Shown here one piece after another: positions 2-9,025 of a stretch of 38,178 nt of DNA. The notes beneath the pieces were generated by a model. That model worked only from the letters and a program-made list of their open reading frames with translations, ran no database searches and was not told where the DNA came from. Each line of letters starts with the position of its first letter. Positions within the stretch are counted from its first letter, which is position 1. A program made the position numbers and the translations under genes. The stretch comes from Clostridia bacterium (GTDB lineage: Bacteria; Bacillota; Clostridia; Oscillospirales; CAG-272): assembly GCA_017415485.1 (NCBI GenBank), contig JAFQGP010000142.1, positions 1 to 38,178 of the forward strand, given 5' to 3'.

Positions 2-946
2 ACATTGAACAGAAAAGGCTACCGTACACGGAGAGGGCAACCGTTTGCCAAAAATTCGCTCAATAATATTCTGAAGAACGAAAGATATACGGGTGTGTAT
101 ATTTACGTTAAAGATACTAGCAAGAATCCTAAAGGAAAGTATGTCAGATTCGGACAATACGATCCCGAGTCCGTTATTAGAATTCCCGGCGGGATGCCCG
201 CTATTATTTCCGAAGATGATTTCAATAAGGTTCAACAAAAGATGAAGGAGCGCCAACACAAAGCGGCAAGGTTCTCTGCAAAGCAGGAGTATCTTTTGAG
301 CGGCAAAATATATTGCGGCGAATGCGGAAGTCCGTATGCCGGTAATTCGCGTAAGCCCCGCCCCGATCATCCATTATATATTTCTTATAAGTGTACGAGG
401 AGAAATCAGCGTAATAAATGTTGTAAAAATCCCGAAATAAACCGTGATAAACTTGAGGGACTTGTTCTTGAGAAACTGTCCGCTGTCTTATTTAACCCTG
501 ATGTGATTCCTTCGCTTGTATCAAGGTATAACCAATATATAGCCGAGAAAAATAGTGGAGCAAAGGAGAGGGTGGATGCTCTGAGGATTCAACTGCGTGA
601 AGTTGAACGCAAGATAAACAATACCATAAATTTGATGATAGATACGGGTTCAGCGGCTTTGAAGAATAAGTTGAGTGAATTGGAACAGAGCAAAGAGACT
701 CTACAGTTTGAATTGTCCGAAGCAGAAAAAGCAATGCAACAGGAGATCTTTTCAGAGGACGAAATTAGCAGATTGTTTCATAAAGCTGAAATCCAATTAA
801 AGAACGGAACTCTTGCAACCCGCCGAACTATCATCGACCAATACATCAGCAAGGTTGTCATATACCCGACAAAGATCGAGGTGTATATGAATTTGATGCC
901 CGATTATGTGGTTAAAGAGATAATAGAGCAAAAACAAACTAGCTAG
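2..946 (+). CDS. Large serine recombinase, C-terminal part (cut by window edge)
   Basis: Site-specific DNA recombinase of the large serine (resolvase/invertase) family. The reading frame is open to the first bases of the window, so the N-terminal catalytic domain lies outside and the TTG at position 5 is probably internal. What remains starts in the recombinase domain (KGYRTRRGQPF, then SLNNILKNERYTGVY), which is typical of these enzymes. A zinc beta-ribbon follows at about residues 100-145 (CGEC, later YKC and KCC), and then a charged coiled coil from about 180 to 265, used for synapsis control. A GC-rich hairpin terminator follows 45 nt downstream. Such genes sit at the end of integrative elements, so it marks the adjacent AT-rich DNA as mobile. 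Which side the element lies on cannot be decided without the left flank. Confidence 0.93.
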   Translation, partial: TLNRKGYRTRRGQPFAKNSLNNILKNERYTGVYIYVKDTSKNPKGKYVRFGQYDPESVIRIPGGMPAIISEDDFNKVQQKMKERQHKAARFSAKQEYLLSGKIYCGECGSPYAGNSRKPRPDHPLYISYKCTRRNQRNKCCKNPEINRDKLEGLVLEKLSAVLFNPDVIPSLVSRYNQYIAEKNSGAKERVDALRIQLREVERKINNTINLMIDTGSAALKNKLSELEQSKETLQFELSEAEKAMQQEIFSEDEISRLFHKAEIQLKNGTLATRRTIIDQYISKVVIYPTKIEVYMNLMPDYVVKEIIEQKQTS

Positions 947-990
947 AAGACATGATGCTTTGTATGTTAATTCTTGATACTAAAAGTTGT

Positions 991-1022
991 GCGCTCCCGC
1001 TAAAAAGTGGGAGCGCGATTTT
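991..1022 (+). terminator. Intrinsic terminator after the recombinase
   Basis: An 11-bp stem (arms 991-1001 and 1006-1016, one G-T pair) has an AAAA loop and is followed by GATTTTGCTTTATTT. It lies between the recombinase and the convergent STAND gene, so it ends the recombinase transcript and may also block read-through from the other side. Confidence 0.75.
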
Positions 1023-1048
1023 GCTTTATTTAATATCAGCAATAAAAC

Positions 1049-3667
1049 TTACTTACATAAGTCATTGGTCAGTTTTTCAAGATCGTTTGCCAAATTATTG
1101 CATTCATCGTTCACAGTTTTGAGGTTTCGTACAATCCCAATTGCTTGATGGTTGATGTTTGCTTTTTTCTTATTAAAAAGCCCACGATTACTTATCATTT
1201 GGGTAAGTGTGATTAACCTTTCAAGAGACGCTTGAATCTCTGGGTTTAGATTAAGACCGCAATCACGATAAATTTCAAAAGCAATACGCATATAATCGAA
1301 GATGATATGAGACAATTCATCAAAGGTCAATCCAATTGTCTTTTTGAGAAGTTGGTCATCATTGATTGTTGATACCAATTCAAGTGCAGAACCTGAAAAT
1401 CTGTTATAATTTCCGATAGTTCCTATCGTATTTGTGTCAAACTCGAACTCTTTATAGATATCTATAGCTTTCAGATTGCTATTGTATGATTTGAGCAAAT
1501 GCCGTATCTTCTCGTCGCTTGTGGTGGCTTCTTTAGCCATGTAATAATGATCTGTTCCAATTGCTCTATGCATAAATGAGATTCTCCGGATCATTCGTTC
1601 TTTTTCAATAGGATTCGATCCAAGCTTTTCCTTGAACGTTTCCCTTTCCTCAAGGGCGAGAGTATGATAATTAAGCGCAGATTTATAATCTTTTATTCTC
1701 AGATAATAACCTGCTTTTATGCCGTGGAGCTGACTTAAAACCCTCATGGCACGAATTTCGTCTTCAGTAGTATCAGACAAAAGTTTCTCACCATACTTAA
1801 TGCATTCGTCAACGATTTTCAGTCTTTTCTCGAGGGATTCGCTCTTATTGTTTAAATATGCATACCCAATAATATTGCAGCAGTTTGCTATTGTCACTTT
1901 GTCGAGTTCGGTTTTCTGGTTGGTTGCTATTTTTTCTCTTGATATTATATCATTCATCTTTTTAAATGCACGTTTAGCATATTCGTAGCCTTTATCGAAT
2001 ATATCAATTGCGGTATAGCATGATGAGATTCTCGCATCGATAACCAAAGACATATCAAGAGTTTTTTTAATTATATCTCCTCCGGAAGGATTCCCTTTCA
2101 ATTCAATAGTTCGCTTTTTTGCTTGTTTCTTTATGTTATCGTCACTAAGAACTTTTGACACGGATTCTGATATTCTAACCCAATCCATCATTTCAGACTT
2201 CAAAATATCCGCGTCCAAATATATGTTTAAGGTACAAAGAAGATCAAATATTTGATTAAAAATCAAATGATTACGGATTACATATTCCATAACGACAGGT
2301 TGCATATAAATCTTACCATTGTTACGGAAGATGATATTATGGTCTTTAAGACGTACCATGGACTTCTCGTCTTCTTTGCTAAGACCGCCGAATGCTTTTT
2401 CAAAATATTCCTCTTTAACTCCACCAATCGGAAGCATGGCAAGAGTTACAAGAATCTTATGCACCGATTGCTTCTCATTATCATCATCAGGATTAACAAT
2501 TCTGTTATTATCTAGGATACAACAAAAATGCTCTAATAGCGTTTTTTCATCCTGTCTTTTTCCGTCCTTCTGAATAGGGAAAGGTTTAGTATTATCTGCT
2601 TTCAGATGAGCTATAGAATCAATAATTTTGTTGACTTCCATTCCTTGATTTGCCAACTCAGCACATAACACGGTAAGATATGTGTTTCCAAGCAGATAAT
2701 TGTCTATTAAATTACACACATTTTTTTTATCAGTTGATTGACCTCTAATTTTGCAAAAAATACTCAACAGGTCGCGCGTTGGAAGAGGAGCTAAACGCGT
2801 TATATGTTTATTGTCATCAATACAGTAGCATTTACTAAGATTCAAGTTTGTGGTTATTAATATTTTGCAACCTGTCTCAAGTAATTGAATATACTCCTTA
2901 TTGCTTGCTGTCAGTTCGCTGCTGGCTTTGGGATTGTCATAATTATCAATTATCAGAAGAACCGATTTTTGATCAGTACTACATATTTTCCGCAACCGGA
3001 AAAGATTTCTCTCAAAGAGATCAACGGAGACGCCGTACTCAATGCGCTCATTCCCCAGATCGGAGATGGTTTGCTTGATTGAATTGTGGTAAGTGACAAC
3101 GAACACATAATCAAATTTACGGTCCTTGATAACTTCATTTGCATAATTAAGTGCATACGTTGTTTTACCCATGCCCGGTTCAGCGTAAATCACGTGGACC
3201 TGGTCATATGGATCAGAGTAAGCACTGCCCAAATGGTCATCAGAATTCTTTTCGCGCTTACAGAAAAATGGAGGTAGACGGTATTTACTCACCGTCATAA
3301 AAGGAACAGGAGGATTTCTATCGCTTATTAAAAACCTGATGAAAAAAGATTCAAACTTTTTTGCATTAAATCTTTGATTTCTATCAAAAATTTCTTCTTC
3401 CGGAAAGTATTCGAATAATGCGATATACTGCAAAAAATTCTTCACGCATTCCTCATCATATTGTGTGATGTCTTCTTTTTTTGAGAACGCGGTTTTACAA
3501 ACGAATATTGCATCTATGTCTCGGGAACGACCGAATCCATTATTAATCCAGTTTCTCAAGGTTTTGGGGGTTACTTCAATATCTCCCGCAAAAGCTTCTT
3601 GCGTGAATTTTCTTGACTTTTTCAAAAAATCCCACAGAATATTAAATGTTGTTTGGCTCGGATTCAT
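1049..3667 (-). CDS. STAND/NB-ARC-like NTPase with N-terminal HTH and helical-repeat C-terminus
   Basis: 872-residue signal-transduction NTPase. Residues 5-45 resemble an HTH (TQEAFAGDIEVTPKTLRNWI). The nucleotide-binding core has a clear Walker A at 163-170 (EPGMGKTT) and a Walker B at 236-244 (VLLIIDNYD), followed by a segment like the STAND sensor/arm region and a winged-helix-like stretch. From about residue 580 the protein is all helical, with TPR-like pairs (for example YKSALNYHTLALEERE). This layout matches STAND proteins such as MalT/AfsR-type regulators and Avs-like or NLR-like defence proteins, which stay off until a ligand binds the C-terminal repeats. No effector nuclease, protease or TIR domain is visible, and the HTH suggests a regulator. 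The start has AAGGAG 8 nt upstream and a consensus promoter. It is divergent from the secreted hydrolase gene. Ligand and target are unknown. Confidence 0.8.
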   Translation of the reverse strand: MNPSQTTFNILWDFLKKSRKFTQEAFAGDIEVTPKTLRNWINNGFGRSRDIDAIFVCKTAFSKKEDITQYDEECVKNFLQYIALFEYFPEEEIFDRNQRFNAKKFESFFIRFLISDRNPPVPFMTVSKYRLPPFFCKREKNSDDHLGSAYSDPYDQVHVIYAEPGMGKTTYALNYANEVIKDRKFDYVFVVTYHNSIKQTISDLGNERIEYGVSVDLFERNLFRLRKICSTDQKSVLLIIDNYDNPKASSELTASNKEYIQLLETGCKILITTNLNLSKCYCIDDNKHITRLAPLPTRDLLSIFCKIRGQSTDKKNVCNLIDNYLLGNTYLTVLCAELANQGMEVNKIIDSIAHLKADNTKPFPIQKDGKRQDEKTLLEHFCCILDNNRIVNPDDDNEKQSVHKILVTLAMLPIGGVKEEYFEKAFGGLSKEDEKSMVRLKDHNIIFRNNGKIYMQPVVMEYVIRNHLIFNQIFDLLCTLNIYLDADILKSEMMDWVRISESVSKVLSDDNIKKQAKKRTIELKGNPSGGDIIKKTLDMSLVIDARISSCYTAIDIFDKGYEYAKRAFKKMNDIISREKIATNQKTELDKVTIANCCNIIGYAYLNNKSESLEKRLKIVDECIKYGEKLLSDTTEDEIRAMRVLSQLHGIKAGYYLRIKDYKSALNYHTLALEERETFKEKLGSNPIEKERMIRRISFMHRAIGTDHYYMAKEATTSDEKIRHLLKSYNSNLKAIDIYKEFEFDTNTIGTIGNYNRFSGSALELVSTINDDQLLKKTIGLTFDELSHIIFDYMRIAFEIYRDCGLNLNPEIQASLERLITLTQMISNRGLFNKKKANINHQAIGIVRNLKTVNDECNNLANDLEKLTNDLCK

Positions 3668-3710
3668 AACTGTATCTCCTTAAAACATAGAAATATATCT
3701 ACATATTTTT

Positions 3711-3739
3711 ATTATATCATAATTATTTTTCAATGTAAA
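3711..3739 (-). promoter_or_regulatory. Sigma-A promoter of the STAND NTPase gene
   Basis: On the minus strand TTTACA (3734-3739) and TATAAT (3711-3716) are separated by 17 bp, about 40 nt before the start codon. Confidence 0.75.
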
Positions 3740-3804
3740 GACAAATAATGATTATTTTCAGCAAATTGTATTACCGCTTTTTCCTATTTTACCTATTAGG
3801 TTTC

Positions 3805-3833
3805 TCGACAGATATTTAACTGTATGGTATAAT
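3805..3833 (+). promoter_or_regulatory. Sigma-A promoter of the secreted hydrolase gene and perhaps the downstream genes
   Basis: TCGACA (3805-3810) and TATAAT (3828-3833) are 17 bp apart, upstream of the ATG at 3880. It is back-to-back with the STAND promoter. The 65 bp between the two promoters is the natural place for a shared operator. Confidence 0.7.
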
Positions 3834-3879
3834 TTATTCACGGGAATCATTCTCGAACGAACGAATAAAGGAGTCAATC

Positions 3880-5220
3880 ATGAAAACCAAAACATCTCGC
3901 ATTCTCAAAAGAACCATCGCGCTTATCTTCGCGATCCTCACAATTTTCAACTCCATTGCATATCTTGATCTTACCATCGGTGCCGCAGAGTGTAATAAGA
4001 AAAGCATCTCGAGCGTTTCTCTGGATACAATTGGCGAAAACCTGTATAGAGTTACTAAAAACAGTGTGCCTGTTCGTGTAGGTCAGAGTGTTCGTTCCGA
4101 ACTCTATTGCTACTTTAACAAAAATACTGTTTTTGTAGCTTCTGAATCTACGAAGACGCACTACAAAATTCAGATGGATAAAAGGACGGTCTATATTAAT
4201 AAGGAGTATTGTTCTAAGGTTGGCGATACTTACAATGCTTCTCTTGCTAAAGCAGTCAACGACTGCAAGGTCAGGGAGGCTCCTTACGAAAGTGCAGCCA
4301 CTCTTGTGTCTCTGAAAAAAGATGATGTAATTTGTATCGTCGGTTATAATAGTGTACGAAATAAGTATCTTATCGGGAACCATTGGTGGACTGCCGTTTA
4401 TGTTGGTGACAATAAGATTGGATATATTTATACGAAGAACATCACAAAGATTTCCAGCCTTAGTCTATCTGTTACTGGGCGAACCCGCGAACTTATGGCC
4501 GGTGAGAGTATGAAAATGACATACAACGTTTCACCTGTAGCAAACGGTGTAGTTTGGAGCACCTCCAACAATAAGGTGGCAAAAATTGATATTTCTGGAA
4601 AAGTTACCGCTATTGCAGGAGGCAATTGCAAGATCTATGCCAAGGTTAATAATATCATTACAGTTTCCTACGATCTTCATGTTGAAAGTTGGGAAGATTA
4701 CCTCAAAAAAATCAACTCCAAATCCAAAGAAGTTGCTAATAGAAAGTCCTTCAATGGATATTGCGGTCTCTTCGTTGGTGCACAGGTCAAAGCCGCTGGA
4801 ATTACTAGTAAGATCGTCGATGAGAATGGTAATAATCAGTATGATTATTACACGAACTATGCACAGAAGCATAACGGTAAAACCGATGCAGGTTACATAA
4901 TTAATAGCTATCCTGCTGACCAATATAATCTCAAAAACGCTCTCAATAAGTTGACAAATAATGGCAAAAAATCCATCTGCAATATACTTGTTGGATTTCA
5001 CACCGGCTCGGGAGAGGATGGCAGAAGATACGGACATGCAGTGATGATCCACCATTTCTCATCGGAGGATGGCAAAATATATTTTTCCGAATCTTTCTCT
5101 GCAAAAGTAGCCGGCAAAACATATTCTGAAGGAACACCTATCGTTTGTACCATTGACCAGTTCGTTCAGTACTATAGTAGTTGGTGTACTTACGAAGGTA
5201 TTATTCATTTTTATAAATGA
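3880..5220 (+). CDS. Secreted SH3b / Ig-like (Big2) / CHAP-like cysteine hydrolase
   Basis: 446 residues with a basic N-terminus and hydrophobic signal segment (residues 12-35), so it is probably exported. Two SH3b-like segments follow (about 50-110 and 115-185), which usually bind cell wall. Residues 188-270 form a bacterial Ig-like (Big2) domain (VVWSTSNNKVAKID, then GKVTAIAGGNCKIYA). The C-terminal 170 residues contain YCGLFVGAQVKAAG with Cys295 and GHAVMIHHF with His386, spaced like the Cys/His dyad of CHAP or NlpC/P60 peptidoglycan hydrolases and related papain-fold enzymes. The start is supported by AAAGGAG ahead of ATG. The likely role is cutting peptidoglycan or a surface substrate outside the cell. 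The family assignment of the last domain is tentative. Confidence 0.72.
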   Translation: MKTKTSRILKRTIALIFAILTIFNSIAYLDLTIGAAECNKKSISSVSLDTIGENLYRVTKNSVPVRVGQSVRSELYCYFNKNTVFVASESTKTHYKIQMDKRTVYINKEYCSKVGDTYNASLAKAVNDCKVREAPYESAATLVSLKKDDVICIVGYNSVRNKYLIGNHWWTAVYVGDNKIGYIYTKNITKISSLSLSVTGRTRELMAGESMKMTYNVSPVANGVVWSTSNNKVAKIDISGKVTAIAGGNCKIYAKVNNIITVSYDLHVESWEDYLKKINSKSKEVANRKSFNGYCGLFVGAQVKAAGITSKIVDENGNNQYDYYTNYAQKHNGKTDAGYIINSYPADQYNLKNALNKLTNNGKKSICNILVGFHTGSGEDGRRYGHAVMIHHFSSEDGKIYFSESFSAKVAGKTYSEGTPIVCTIDQFVQYYSSWCTYEGIIHFYK

Positions 5221-5303
5221 AAAGTAAGATGATACAAATGTTATGTTAACTAATTCGAGTAGGCAGTTTGAGTTGTTTAGAAAGCCTTGAAAGGAATTGT
5301 ATA

Positions 5304-5576
5304 ATGAAGAACAAAATTAATAAAGTACTTGAAGCAATATTGGAAGATGCCATTGTTTCAGGAGAAGATATACTTGAAATCATTGACGAAAGATACAGTG
5401 GTCGTGAGGCGGTTGATATTTTCTTAGGTATTATTGCTTATTTTGATGATTGGCGGATATACCAAGCACTTTTGACAAATTACAGAGATTATCTTTTGCC
5501 CAATGAGATTAAAAGGATTACAGATAGTGCAGAAGATCTCTTCGATTCCGAGCTGCTCACGTGGCTTGAAGAATAA
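5304..5576 (+). CDS. Small acidic helical protein, unknown function
   Basis: 90 residues, starting at ATG 5304 with AAAGG about 10 nt upstream. A longer frame from 5268 lacks a ribosome site. The product is rich in Asp and Glu, predicted mainly helical, and has no signal peptide or membrane segment. I recognise no domain. It lies 83 nt after the secreted hydrolase and 32 nt before the next gene, so it appears to be part of the same transcription unit. Its size and charge would suit an adaptor, immunity or chaperone-type partner, but nothing in the sequence proves that. Confidence 0.6.
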   Translation: MKNKINKVLEAILEDAIVSGEDILEIIDERYSGREAVDIFLGIIAYFDDWRIYQALLTNYRDYLLPNEIKRITDSAEDLFDSELLTWLEE

Positions 5577-5608
5577 CAATTATAAATAATTGAAAGGAGA
5601 AAAATCAA

Positions 5609-6061
5609 ATGAAACACAAAAGAGAACTCTGTTATTTTATTACTCTTCCGAAGAGAAGAGAGCGGTATGTGTTTCTCCATAAAGTATGGAAAAACATAAA
5701 AAATCTGCATGATATCAATTTTATTTTTGACCACGACATTCGAATTCACGAAAATGTCAAAGAGCTCTATGATGACGCTGTTCGGCTCATTCGGGAGATT
5801 GACGTGATGCTGTTTTTTGTTCAGTTAGACTTCCTCGATACCGACGAAGAGCGCCCAGATTATGATTCTATCTTTCGCTTTACACATATTCCATACTCAG
5901 TGTCTCTTTTTGTTCTTCCCCCGGATCTGAAATGTGAGGATGAGAAGTGGGTCAATGGACTTTATGAAAGATTTCGCGAAGAGAACTCGGAAATTATCAT
6001 TCTTCCTCATGACGAAGAAGCTGTTGCATCAATTATAGCGTATGAATTCAAAGGAGCCTAA
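5609..6061 (+). CDS. Stand-alone alpha/beta domain protein, paralogue of the next two genes
   Basis: 150 residues with a good ribosome site (GAAAGGAG). The pattern is strand (LCYFITLP), helix (FLHKVWKNI), strand (VMLFFVQLDF), strand (VSLFVLPPD), helix (KWVNGLYERFREE), strand (IIILPH), helix: a Rossmann-like alpha/beta fold. The last third aligns by eye with the 6813 product (VFFVPLESK, then KKFLFRLKEEY) and more weakly with the 6066 product (YMVIVPADD, then FVYLMEKASE). This protein has only the shared domain and lacks the C-terminal L7/L12-like extension. No P-loop or catalytic motif is evident. It could be a sensor or a ligand-binding domain, possibly distantly related to TIR or flavodoxin folds, but that is a guess. 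Confidence 0.65.
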   Translation: MKHKRELCYFITLPKRRERYVFLHKVWKNIKNLHDINFIFDHDIRIHENVKELYDDAVRLIREIDVMLFFVQLDFLDTDEERPDYDSIFRFTHIPYSVSLFVLPPDLKCEDEKWVNGLYERFREENSEIIILPHDEEAVASIIAYEFKGA

Positions 6062-6065
6062 AATA

Positions 6066-6809
6066 ATGATAATGCCTACATTTGACGATTACTGCACCAA
6101 AAAAATGGAAGCCCACGCCTACCGTTTTAGTCTCAGTGATATTATTATCGCCTATTGCTCGGATGAAAATGTCGATACTTTAGTTCGACGCACAAGAGGG
6201 CGGACCAAACCGAGTTGTTACCGTGAATATACAGTCGAGAATCTTGATAACTCTACATCGCTTGAAAACGTACATAATAGAATCGCCAAAAAGCAGCGCA
6301 AGTGCATTAGTGCTGATGGCAAGCTCCTCTGCTTTTTGAATTGCCACGGCCTTATCAATAGTGATCTTATTGATATAGACAAAACTATATCTCTGTTAAG
6401 TATTAAAATGGCGACATATATGGTAATCGTCCCCGCTGATGATACCGCAGTCGATGTGGAAAGCTTTGTGTATTTGATGGAGAAAGCATCCGAAGGTTTG
6501 GGTAAAAGCATAGAGTACGTTCGCTTTGGCGACAAGCCTGAAAGCTCTCTTGATAAAGACGAAGCTAGCGCCGATACCGATGATAATAGGGTTGCGATTG
6601 CAATACCTGACGGCGTCCCAAATAGCATTGAGCGTGTGGACATTGCAAGAGCTTTGAGAAGTCTCAGTATCAGCCATACCTCGCTCCTTGATAATATGTT
6701 GACTCTTGGAGAACCGACAAAAGTTATCTGTAAAGATACCGAAATAGCAGGTATCATTTTGCGATCTCTTATAAGAAGAAATGTAAAAGCCTATATAACG
6801 GAGGATTAA
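6066..6809 (+). CDS. Alpha/beta domain fused to an L7/L12 C-terminal-like domain
   Basis: 247 residues. The ATG at 6066 is preferred over the upstream ATG at 6042 because AAGGAG lies 9 nt ahead of it. The 6042 start would also overlap the previous gene. Residues 1-160 have the alpha/beta pattern shared with the neighbours (LLCFLNCHGL, then YMVIVPADD). After an acidic, low-complexity linker (about 165-185), the last 70 residues follow beta-alpha-alpha-beta-alpha-beta: VAIAIP, SIERVDIARALRSL, SLLDNML, PTKVICKD, EIAGIILRSLIRRN, VKAYITED. This is the order and spacing of the ribosomal protein L7/L12 C-terminal domain, a protein-protein interaction fold. It is translationally close-coupled to both neighbours (gaps of 4 and 3 nt). 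Function unknown. Confidence 0.65.
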   Translation: MIMPTFDDYCTKKMEAHAYRFSLSDIIIAYCSDENVDTLVRRTRGRTKPSCYREYTVENLDNSTSLENVHNRIAKKQRKCISADGKLLCFLNCHGLINSDLIDIDKTISLLSIKMATYMVIVPADDTAVDVESFVYLMEKASEGLGKSIEYVRFGDKPESSLDKDEASADTDDNRVAIAIPDGVPNSIERVDIARALRSLSISHTSLLDNMLTLGEPTKVICKDTEIAGIILRSLIRRNVKAYITED

Positions 6810-6812
6810 ACT

Positions 6813-7703
6813 ATGAAAGCAATTGACAGATTGTTGAACGAAATCAGACGCATCACTTACCGACATGTCGGTGACAACAAGCCCTTTTTCTCATTTGAAA
6901 TGCCATGCTTTATCGTGCACAGTCCCAAGAGTAAGCATGTTCGTATCAAACGTGAAATGCTGAGAATTTTTAAAGAGTATAATGAGGATTTCACCCAGAA
7001 GTCTCTGAGAATCAACGAACGGAACTATGCAAGCGAATTTCGTGCCTACTGTAGAGACCTCGGTATGGAGGATGATGAACGCGTGACATTTATACACATA
7101 TCGGACTCGGTATTTGATAATACTCTTCCTCCGTCAGCAGAAGAACTTCTCTGCTGGGGCTGCATGGGGGCGGTTGTGTTCTTCGTTCCTCTTGAATCAA
7201 AACTCTCACGCAAAGCGAAGAAATTCCTATTTCGTCTGAAAGAGGAGTATATCGAAGCCGGCTTAACTCTTCATGAGTTACACTATGATCGCTTGGCTGC
7301 CGACGCAGAAAGCGAGACCAACCTATGTATTGAGGCCGCCAAAATAATGAAGCATTGCCACAACTGTGTCGTCGAAAAGAAGAAAGCTTTTTCAATCAAA
7401 GACAATGAAGAAATTGCAGTATCTAAACCTGAGGCTCATTGGCTTGTTGACAAAATATTTGAAACGAAGAATGATGATGGAAGTGAGATAGGGGTTATTG
7501 AGATCATCGATATTCCCCCGCTTGTGGACAAGTATGATCTTGCTCGCACAATAAATGGCAAATATCCTAAAGTAAGCTTTATTGACACATGGCTTGGCCT
7601 TTGTGGTCATCTGCCTCATCGAATCTATTGCTATTCATCATCTGATGCCCAAGAACTTGAAGATTATCTCCAGTCGAGAGGGATTACTTGCTATTCGTAT
7701 TGA
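6813..7703 (+). CDS. Alpha/beta domain fused to an L7/L12 C-terminal-like domain (second paralogue)
   Basis: 296 residues, with GGAGG 7 nt upstream. Residues 25-180 are the alpha/beta domain (CFIVHSPKSK, VTFIHISDSV, VVFFVPLESK, FLFRLKEEYIEA). The final 75 residues repeat the L7/L12-like pattern seen in the gene before it: GVIEIIDIPP, KYDLARTING, FIDTWLGL, PHRIYCYSS, AQELEDYLQSRG, ITCYSY. The two C-terminal domains differ widely in sequence but keep the hydrophobic pattern, which argues for old paralogues rather than recent duplication. It lies 3 nt after the previous stop, so the two proteins are probably made in similar amounts and may form a complex. No enzymatic motif is visible. Confidence 0.65.
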   Translation: MKAIDRLLNEIRRITYRHVGDNKPFFSFEMPCFIVHSPKSKHVRIKREMLRIFKEYNEDFTQKSLRINERNYASEFRAYCRDLGMEDDERVTFIHISDSVFDNTLPPSAEELLCWGCMGAVVFFVPLESKLSRKAKKFLFRLKEEYIEAGLTLHELHYDRLAADAESETNLCIEAAKIMKHCHNCVVEKKKAFSIKDNEEIAVSKPEAHWLVDKIFETKNDDGSEIGVIEIIDIPPLVDKYDLARTINGKYPKVSFIDTWLGLCGHLPHRIYCYSSSDAQELEDYLQSRGITCYSY

Positions 7704-7744
7704 AGAAAAAACAAACTTGCCAAGAAAAAACGGAGGTGATTAAT

Positions 7745-8719
7745 TTGAGAATTATAATTCGATTCATCAGCGGTTGGGAAGGTTGGGGTACAGCTTTTGC
7801 GGTGCTTCTCATAGTTTGTATTCTCGGCAGTGCTCTTTCTGGCGCTACTGACGCTGTGCCTTATAATCCGTTAAATCAACTGCATGAATCTTCCACATTT
7901 GACAGCGGTGTCAGGAAGGTTGACACATTCTATGACAAAAGCGGGAATAAGTATGCTGCTGCCTTGATGTTCCAGTATGGTGACCCATCTGACCGAGATG
8001 TATATAAACTGGATGGCAAGTACACATCCTTTAGCGGCACAGTGTTTGTTCCTTCCAGTAGAGGTAACAAAGAAGACAGCGCACCAATCTTTATCTACGG
8101 CGATGGCAAGCGTCTTTGGGCAAGTTCGCACATGCGAGCTGACAGCCCTCCCGAAGATTTTTGCATTAATGTTAGTGGCGTAAATGAGTTGGAAATCCGA
8201 TATGATGGAGGCGCAATCACTTGGAAATTACCCATCGCAATCGGAAACATCAGTATCGGAACAGATACAGTTAGCGGTTCTGCGCCTTCTGAGTTGCCGA
8301 CTCGTCTTTTGGATTTGCCGATGAAGGAGTCCACGTTTATTTGCCGTTATACTCATAGAGCAGTAGAAGATCACTTTGGCAACTACTACGAAGATGTAGT
8401 GCTGTATTATTTTGGTAGTGAGGACGACAAAGATGTATATCTGCTGAATGGTGAGTATTCTTATTTATCTGGTACCATCTGTATTCCTACCGAAAGAGGC
8501 ACTTCTGTTTCCGACGAGTGGGGACTCGATAAAATGTACTACATTCGAATCTATGGCGATGGAAAGCTTTTGTATACCTCCCCACAGATGGTAGGACTAC
8601 AAGAGCCGGTTGACTTCAAAATTCCCGTGGACAATGTAAAAGAGTTAACTGTCACCTATTATGGCGGTGCTTCGACTTGGAATATGCATATTGCTATGAC
8701 AAATCTCCTTCTGACATAA
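7745..8719 (+). CDS. Membrane-anchored protein with two NPCBM-like domains
   Basis: 324 residues from a TTG start. GGAGGTGA at 7732-7739 fits this start, and the longer upstream frame would overlap the ribosome site and run into the previous gene. An N-terminal hydrophobic segment (AFAVLLIVCILGSAL) anchors or exports the protein. Two tandem beta-rich repeats of about 120 residues follow (about 45-165 and 190-320). Each has the same markers: DVYKLDGKY or DVYLLNGEY, FSGTVFVP or LSGTICIP, IFIYGDGKRLW or IRIYGDGKLLY, then VNELEIRYDGGA or VKELTVTYYGGA. This pattern matches the NPCBM (novel putative carbohydrate-binding module) family. It probably binds glycan at the outer surface, in line with the secreted wall-acting protein at 3880. 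It is the last gene of the set. Confidence 0.7.
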   Translation: MRIIIRFISGWEGWGTAFAVLLIVCILGSALSGATDAVPYNPLNQLHESSTFDSGVRKVDTFYDKSGNKYAAALMFQYGDPSDRDVYKLDGKYTSFSGTVFVPSSRGNKEDSAPIFIYGDGKRLWASSHMRADSPPEDFCINVSGVNELEIRYDGGAITWKLPIAIGNISIGTDTVSGSAPSELPTRLLDLPMKESTFICRYTHRAVEDHFGNYYEDVVLYYFGSEDDKDVYLLNGEYSYLSGTICIPTERGTSVSDEWGLDKMYYIRIYGDGKLLYTSPQMVGLQEPVDFKIPVDNVKELTVTYYGGASTWNMHIAMTNLLLT

Positions 8720-8742
8720 ATTGATAAGACGCTACACAACTC

Positions 8743-8784
8743 TGCGTAACAAATTGCGTAACACCCATCAAAAAGCTGCGTAAC
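8743..8784 (+). repeat. Three direct repeats of TGCGTAAC
   Basis: TGCGTAAC occurs at 8743, 8755 and 8777, spaced 12 and 22 bp, in the gap between the last island gene and the tRNA. The rest of 8720-8902 holds no gene or promoter that I can see. The repeats could be a recombinase or excisionase binding site, or a leftover of a coding frame (they read LRNKLRNTHQKAA on the plus strand). Confidence 0.55.
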
Positions 8785-8902
8785 AGGGCATAAAAAAGAG
8801 CATTTCAGATTGATTGAAATTTGATATAGCTCTGTTTAGGGTATCTAAAATTATTTGTTGTTTCCAAGTCAATTCATTCATATTTAACTCCCTATATGAA
8901 AC

Positions 8903-8930
8903 AAGTCCACAACATTGCTGTTGTGGACTT
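8903..8930 (-). terminator. Hairpin downstream of tRNA-Ser
   Basis: A perfect 11-bp stem (8903-8913 with 8920-8930) has a 6-nt loop and starts 3 nt after the tRNA 3' end on the minus strand. The T-run after it is weak (GTTTC), so it may act as a terminator or as part of an attachment site. Confidence 0.55.
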
Positions 8931-8933
8931 GAC

Positions 8934-9025
8934 TGGCGGAGATGGAGAGATTTGAACTCTCGCGCCGGTTATCCCGACCTACACCCTTAGCAGGGGCGCC
9001 TCTTCGGCCTCTTGAGTACATCTCC
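8934..9025 (-). tRNA. tRNA-Ser, anticodon GCU
   Basis: Long-variable-arm tRNA of 92 nt including an encoded CCA. On the minus strand it begins GGAGATG and ends CATCTCC-G-CCA, forming the 7-bp acceptor stem. The anticodon loop is CTGCTAA (anticodon GCT, reading AGC/AGU codons), the variable arm is long as in serine tRNAs, and the T-loop reads GTTCAAATC. It has its own consensus promoter and points towards the AT-rich island, so the island abuts the 3' end of the gene, a classic integration site. Confidence 0.95.

What the first reader, a model, noticed from the sequence alone, without database searches (positions are those of the whole stretch)
3668..8719. Candidate undescribed system: STAND NTPase divergent from secreted hydrolase, triple paralogues and NPCBM protein
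A STAND NTPase with an HTH faces six plus-strand genes across a 212-bp gap with back-to-back promoters. Most of the plus-strand genes are tightly packed (3-41 nt gaps; 83 nt after the hydrolase gene). Two products act outside the cell (a CHAP-like hydrolase with SH3b/Big2, and a two-NPCBM membrane protein), and four are cytoplasmic. The combination suggests a signal-controlled surface or defence system carried on an island. Function is inferred only.
Basis: partly seen in the sequence, partly recalled or inferred. Interest (0 to 1): 0.85.

Follow-up and report, generated by a model that had tools for sequence, protein, structure and literature searches.

The report
NTPase switch paired with secreted hydrolase
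A mobile island in an uncultured Clostridia-like bacterium carries a nucleotide-driven switch protein, probably a gene regulator, facing an operon that begins with a secreted cell-surface enzyme; the same regulator–enzyme pairing recurs at two other loci, so the pairing looks real, but what it senses and what most of the operon does are unknown.

Summary
The layout is confirmed: a HTH–STAND NTPase (1049-3667, -) and six plus-strand genes (3880-8719) across a 212-bp gap with two 11/12 sigma-A-type promoters. "Triple paralogues" is not: only the 247- and 296-aa proteins share a C-terminal domain (z 7.9); the 150-aa protein shows no similarity to either. All three are orphans in every collection searched. 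The whole system as proposed was therefore not found twice. A core of it was: all three members found of this STAND subfamily (window; another contig of the same genome, 42% identical; Clostridiaceae MAG DUPQ01000070, 25%) lie beside a secreted Ig-like-domain cysteine-peptidase gene, although such peptidases number only one or two per genome. Across the pairs the STAND body is kept while its N-terminal DNA-binding domain is swapped (Xre-like HTH or winged helix), and in the window's genome the hydrolase's SH3/Big2 scaffold is kept while its catalytic domain is swapped. Best reading: an AfsR/MalT-like NTPase transcription switch that controls a secreted hydrolase, here extended into a six-gene surface operon, carried at the tRNA-Ser end of a genomic island. 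Defence is possible but unproven. New variant of a known kind.

The parts
1049..3667 (-). HTH-STAND NTPase with helical C-terminal region; predicted NTP-dependent transcription regulator
   Evidence: HTH_19 E 0.002 at residues 14-47, NACHT/AAA_22 at 156-263; phage transcriptional-regulator family E 7e-4; homologues in G000:C74 (42%) and L017 (25%)
3668..3879 (.). divergent intergenic region with back-to-back sigma-A-type promoters (+: TCGACA/TATAAT 3805-3833; -: TTTACA/TATAAT 3739-3711)
   Evidence: both 11/12 matches, 17-nt spacer
3880..5220 (+). secreted hydrolase: signal peptide, SH3-like, Big_2, C-terminal papain/CHAP-like domain with conserved Cys and His
   Evidence: Pfam; domain family of five with invariant Cys, His; scaffold homologue beside the second STAND
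5304..5576 (+). 90-aa helical-looking orphan protein
   Evidence: ORF with RBS; only a weak PD-T4-2_A match, E 8e-4
5609..6061 (+). 150-aa orphan protein; no sequence similarity to its two neighbours
6066..6809 (+). 247-aa orphan; C-terminal ~85-aa domain shared with next gene
   Evidence: z 7.9; no family match
6813..7703 (+). 296-aa orphan; same C-terminal domain, predicted b-a-a-b-a-b order
   Evidence: model of low confidence (pLDDT 38)
7745..8719 (+). membrane-anchored or secreted protein with two NPCBM domains
   Evidence: Pfam NPCBM E 6e-18; internal duplication z 31
8733..8806 (.). island-end sequence with three TGCGTAAC repeats
   Evidence: 82-89% identical to island ends in L047, L048, L049, two of them near tRNA-Pro and one of these with a tyrosine integrase
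8934..9025 (-). tRNA-Ser (GCT); conserved synteny of relatives begins exactly at its 3' end (8934)

Best explanation
The STAND protein is a signal-dependent transcription regulator of the AfsR/MalT type. An N-terminal DNA-binding domain is held in check by the NTPase and a helical sensor region; binding of an unknown cytoplasmic inducer allows ATP exchange and activates it. It then switches on the divergent promoter at 3805-3833, producing a secreted SH3/Big_2 papain-like hydrolase and, from the same run of tightly spaced genes, four cytoplasmic proteins and a surface-exposed two-NPCBM protein. The response therefore acts at the cell envelope: remodelling, shielding, or attacking a neighbour or invader. 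Shown: the anatomy, the recurrent STAND-secreted-peptidase linkage, the N-terminal domain swap, the island position. Inferred: DNA binding, direction of regulation, single transcript, envelope target. Unknown: the inducer and the role of the four cytoplasmic proteins.
For: Three of three subfamily members found lie beside a secreted Ig-like cysteine-peptidase gene: window (divergent, 212 bp), G000:C74 (divergent, 138 bp; SH3_3 + Big_2 + Peptidase_C39_2), L017 (same strand, one gene between; fn3 + C39_2). C39_2 genes number only 2 in the window's genome and 1 in L017's genome, and one in each is the STAND neighbour. The window hydrolase's scaffold (residues 5-269) has one clear homologue in its genome, the one beside the second STAND. 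The STAND N-termini are unrelated to each other (z 1.3 or less) although the bodies align from about residue 120 on, and two of them match Trans_reg_C, one at E 9e-6 and one at 0.002: the N-terminal domain is swapped between DNA-binding types, whereas three of the more distant relatives examined (L021, L030, L032) begin with what reads as a TIR domain. AfsR has the same order (winged helix, NTPase, TPR) and is autoinhibited by NTPase and TPR (PMC10936776). Two 11/12 promoters in the gap.
Against: Only three members were found, two in one genome, which could be a local duplication with later domain change. The HTH match in the window protein is below Pfam's cut-off. No operator could be distinguished from chance. 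The rest of the operon was not seen elsewhere, so its membership rests on gene spacing alone. In L017 the peptidase is not divergent, and the hydrolase's catalytic-domain relatives elsewhere in the family are not beside STAND genes.
Confidence: 0.55

Rival explanations
1. Anti-phage or anti-plasmid defence: the STAND senses an invader protein and triggers a lethal or protective response in which the orphan proteins are effectors.
For: Island cargo next to a tRNA; a related island end carries AbiH; more distant relatives of the STAND body begin with TIR-like regions; NPCBM domains occur with AP-ATPase-TPR genes in predicted conflict systems (PMC8195603).
Against: No PADLOC match to any part above noise; the STAND carries a DNA-binding-type N-terminus rather than a toxic effector; the constant partner is a secreted enzyme, and the published NPCBM systems are intracellular.
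Confidence: 0.22
2. Competition or self-protection at the envelope: the hydrolase attacks rival cell walls or processes an extracellular peptide, with the NPCBM protein as surface receptor or shield.
For: Signal peptide, SH3 and Big_2 with a Cys/His catalytic domain; swap between papain-like and C39_2 domains on one scaffold.
Against: No immunity gene recognisable; substrate unknown; compatible with the best explanation rather than exclusive of it.
Confidence: 0.3
3. Coincidental stacking of unrelated island cargo: a STAND-hydrolase pair, and a separate orphan/NPCBM operon acquired independently.
For: The 83-nt gap after the hydrolase and a promoter-like site at 5276-5305; the second STAND locus lacks the orphan genes.
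Against: Same strand, gaps of 3-41 nt after the first, similar low G+C, no terminator-like site on the + strand between the hydrolase and the next gene.
Confidence: 0.3

Closest known systems
AfsR (SARP-NOD-TPR) and other STAND transcription activators such as MalT and GutR
   Same: DNA-binding domain, NTPase and helical C-terminal region in one protein; two of the three subfamily members have the winged helix in the N-terminal place as AfsR does
   Different: Window member has an Xre-like HTH instead; no bacterial transcriptional activation domain found; linked to a secreted peptidase gene; inducer unknown
NPCBM and AP-ATPase conflict systems (Kaur et al. 2021, PMC8195603)
   Same: NPCBM domains encoded near a STAND/AP-ATPase-type NTPase
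   Different: There NPCBM is fused to TIR, kinase or bDLD3 or encoded with caspases and acts inside the cell; here it has an N-terminal membrane segment and none of these partners
TIR-STAND NTPases of Clostridia
   Same: NTPase body detectably related
   Different: TIR replaced by a DNA-binding domain

Membership tests
STAND transcription regulators (AfsR/MalT type) | STAND-type P-loop NTPase core | tested here: met
   GMGKT and LLIIDNYD-type motifs conserved; NACHT/AAA_22/NB-ARC matches, though weak
STAND transcription regulators (AfsR/MalT type) | DNA-binding domain in the same chain | tested here: met
   HTH_19 E 0.002 (window, below cut-off); Trans_reg_C E 9e-6 and 0.002 in the two relatives, just below and below cut-off
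STAND transcription regulators (AfsR/MalT type) | TPR-like sensor region | tested here: inconclusive
   no TPR family match in the three members; region not modelled
STAND transcription regulators (AfsR/MalT type) | activates target promoter on inducer and ATP binding | not testable with these tools
   needs in vitro transcription
NPCBM/AP-ATPase conflict systems (PMC8195603) | NPCBM fused to or beside effector (TIR, caspase, kinase, bDLD3) | tested here: not met
   no such domain in 1049-8719
known anti-phage systems in PADLOC | match to system components | tested here: not met
   only weak partial matches
CHAP amidase family | Pfam CHAP or NlpC/P60 match | tested here: not met
   no match in Pfam with the sequence and no relevant match in PDB with the five-member profile; Cys and His conserved

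The most novel reading that the evidence does not exclude
A modular mobile system in Clostridia in which a STAND NTPase with exchangeable DNA-binding domains controls a secreted hydrolase with exchangeable catalytic domains, and in this island also an operon of previously unseen cytoplasmic proteins and a surface NPCBM receptor: an inside-sensing, outside-acting defence or competition system.
Probability: 0.3. Interest if true: 0.75.

Novelty: new variant of a known kind. Interest (0 to 1): 0.5.

Why it matters
Bacterial STAND proteins are mostly studied as intracellular immune sensors or metabolic regulators. A recurrent pairing of a STAND regulator with a secreted cysteine peptidase, in which both partners exchange domains while the pairing holds, would link an NTPase switch inside the cell to an enzyme acting outside it, and gives a simple two-gene module (G000:C74) on which to test that link.

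Tried and rejected
Searches for relatives of the orphan proteins found nothing convincing: 295 genomes of the order and 146 of the family, all genome contigs (close relatives only), viral contigs, plasmids and phages; two borderline hits (L034, L035) lie in or beside ordinary genes and were rejected. Structure predictions of the 255- and 296-aa ORFs without relatives failed (pLDDT 35 and 38), so no fold search was run; the b-a-a-b-a-b order of the shared C-terminal domain recalls ribosomal L7/L12 or ClpS but is only a lead. The weak PD-T4-2_A, Cas3, sigma-factor and restriction-subunit matches were rejected as partial and weak. No operator in the intergenic region stood out from chance: three 6-bp-arm inverted repeats against 1.6 expected. 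Viral-contig scans for the STAND family found none. More distant STANDs (L018-L021, L029-L032) have other N-termini and no secreted peptidase neighbour was seen in the stretches read; they were not counted as members. Literature searches for a STAND regulator paired with a secreted peptidase found no description.

Full report
What is there. The window is one contig (C140, 38,178 bases) of a 2.69-Mb, 154-contig, 87%-complete genome. The described genes are present. The STAND ORF occupies 1049-3667 on the minus strand. Six plus-strand genes follow from 3880 to 8719. RBS-supported starts are 3880, 5304, 5609, 6066, 6813 and 7745, giving gaps of 83, 32, 4, 3 and 41 nt. The 212-bp gap holds two promoter-like sites of 11 of 12 consensus bases, one on each strand, both with a 17-nt spacer and TG before the -10 hexamer. 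These are the two best of 27 promoter-like matches in the region, where 15 are expected by shuffling.

Proteins. The STAND has weak NACHT/AAA matches at residues 156-263 and an HTH at its N-terminus. The hydrolase has a signal-peptide-like start, a weak SH3, Big_2 and a C-terminal domain that matches no Pfam family and no relevant solved structure. Its close relatives are secreted proteins elsewhere in the same bacterial family (G000:C19, G384, G380, G342), with invariant Cys and His residues as in papain-like enzymes. The last gene encodes an N-terminal membrane segment and two NPCBM copies that are internal duplicates (z 31). The four proteins between are orphans.

Paralogy. Shuffle tests show that the C-terminal ~85 residues of the 6066 and 6813 products are related (z 7.9). 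Nothing supports a relation of the 5609 product to either, or between the N-terminal halves (z below 1). So two of the three are partial paralogues; 'triple' is not supported by sequence.

Does it recur? The orphan proteins do not: no homologue in 295 genomes of the order, 146 of the family, 84,980 species' contigs (close relatives only), viral contigs, plasmids or phages, each for the proteins tested there. The STAND does. A second copy, 42% identical over residues 126-866, lies on contig C74 of the same genome, and a third, 25% identical, in a Clostridiaceae MAG (L017). Profile searches of 394, 391 and 388 genomes of the order, class and phylum returned no other close member; the weaker hits examined differ at the N-terminus, and three of them (L021, L030, L032) begin with what reads as a TIR domain.

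The pairing. On C74 the STAND (L005 4799-7333) is divergent, across 138 bp, from a secreted protein with SH3_3, Big_2 and Peptidase_C39_2 (L005 3356-4660). In L017 it is followed by one unknown gene and then a secreted fn3 + C39_2 protein (L017 13441-14655). C39_2 domains number two in the window's genome and one in L017's genome, so adjacency in both is unlikely to be chance: for about 2,500 genes, a C39_2 gene within two places of a given gene is expected in well under 1% of cases in each genome (my estimate). In the window the corresponding gene has a different catalytic domain on a homologous scaffold: residues 5-269 of the hydrolase match only the C74 peptidase's N-terminal part in its genome at E 1e-5 or better (E 5e-21). 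The regulator shows the mirror image: bodies align from about residue 120, N-termini do not (z 1.3 or less), with HTH_19 in the window and Trans_reg_C in the other two. The two Trans_reg_C members align with each other from residue ~38, so they may share a divergent winged helix.

Mechanism. A STAND NTPase whose N-terminus is exchanged between DNA-binding types, lying beside the gene for one kind of secreted enzyme, is best read as its transcription regulator. AfsR has the same domain order, and its activator domain is inhibited by the NTPase and TPR regions and released with ATP (PMC10936776). Regulation, direction and inducer are inference. In the window the regulated unit probably extends through the NPCBM gene because of spacing and strand, but an internal promoter-like site at 5276-5305 leaves two units possible.

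Island. DNA of same-genus genomes is colinear from exactly 8934, the 3' end of tRNA-Ser(GCT), and not to its left. The stretch 8733-8806, with three TGCGTAAC repeats, is 82-89% identical to sequences at other loci, two of them within 150 bp of a tRNA-Pro; one of those (L049) carries a tyrosine integrase and an AbiH gene. G+C is 38.5% for 947-8719 against 48.1% for 9222-38178. The cargo thus lies at the tRNA end of an island. The serine recombinase at 5-946 is cut by the contig start, and its relation to this island is unknown.

Known systems. Predicted conflict systems combine NPCBM with AP-ATPase-TPR genes, but with intracellular NPCBM fusions to TIR, kinases or bDLD3, or with caspases (PMC8195603). 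None of these partners is present here. No component gives more than a weak partial match in PADLOC. I found no paper describing a STAND regulator paired with a secreted cysteine peptidase in the open-access library searched; subscription journals are mostly not covered.

Verdict. The small number of members (three, two of them in one genome) is the main weakness.

Noticed in passing
window 5-946: Large serine recombinase whose N-terminal catalytic part is cut off by the contig start; it faces the STAND gene's 3' end and may be a second mobile element nested in or beside the tRNA-Ser island.
   Followed up: no
window 8733-8806; L047 10008-10081; L048 10006-10073; L049 4892-4967: A conserved ~70-bp island-end sequence with repeated TGCGTAAC shared by several islands of one genus, two near tRNA-Pro, one near tRNA-Ser; could serve as a tag to find these islands.
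   Followed up: partly
L049 3494-4711: AbiH-family gene (Pfam E 7e-35) lies directly inside the same kind of island end.
   Followed up: partly
L047 10156-12933: 925-aa fusion of a CoiA-like nuclease region with a UvrD-type helicase at an island end.
   Followed up: no
L005 3117-3360: The second STAND-peptidase pair lies next to the 3' end of a tRNA-Arg, followed by what looks like a tRNA fragment on the other strand; possibly another integration site.
   Followed up: partly
window 8902-8931: Perfect 13-bp hairpin just past the 3' end of tRNA-Ser, probably its terminator, outside the stretch conserved in relatives, so apparently supplied by the island.
   Followed up: no
L015 16464-17770: Two adjacent small genes whose N-termini read like TIR domains, by eye only, near an integrase-like gene in genome G380.
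   Followed up: no
L013, L014, L015, L016 and window 4650-5220: Secreted Cys/His catalytic domain with no Pfam family, found in low copy in a few genomes of this bacterial family, usually with SH3 repeats.
   Followed up: partly
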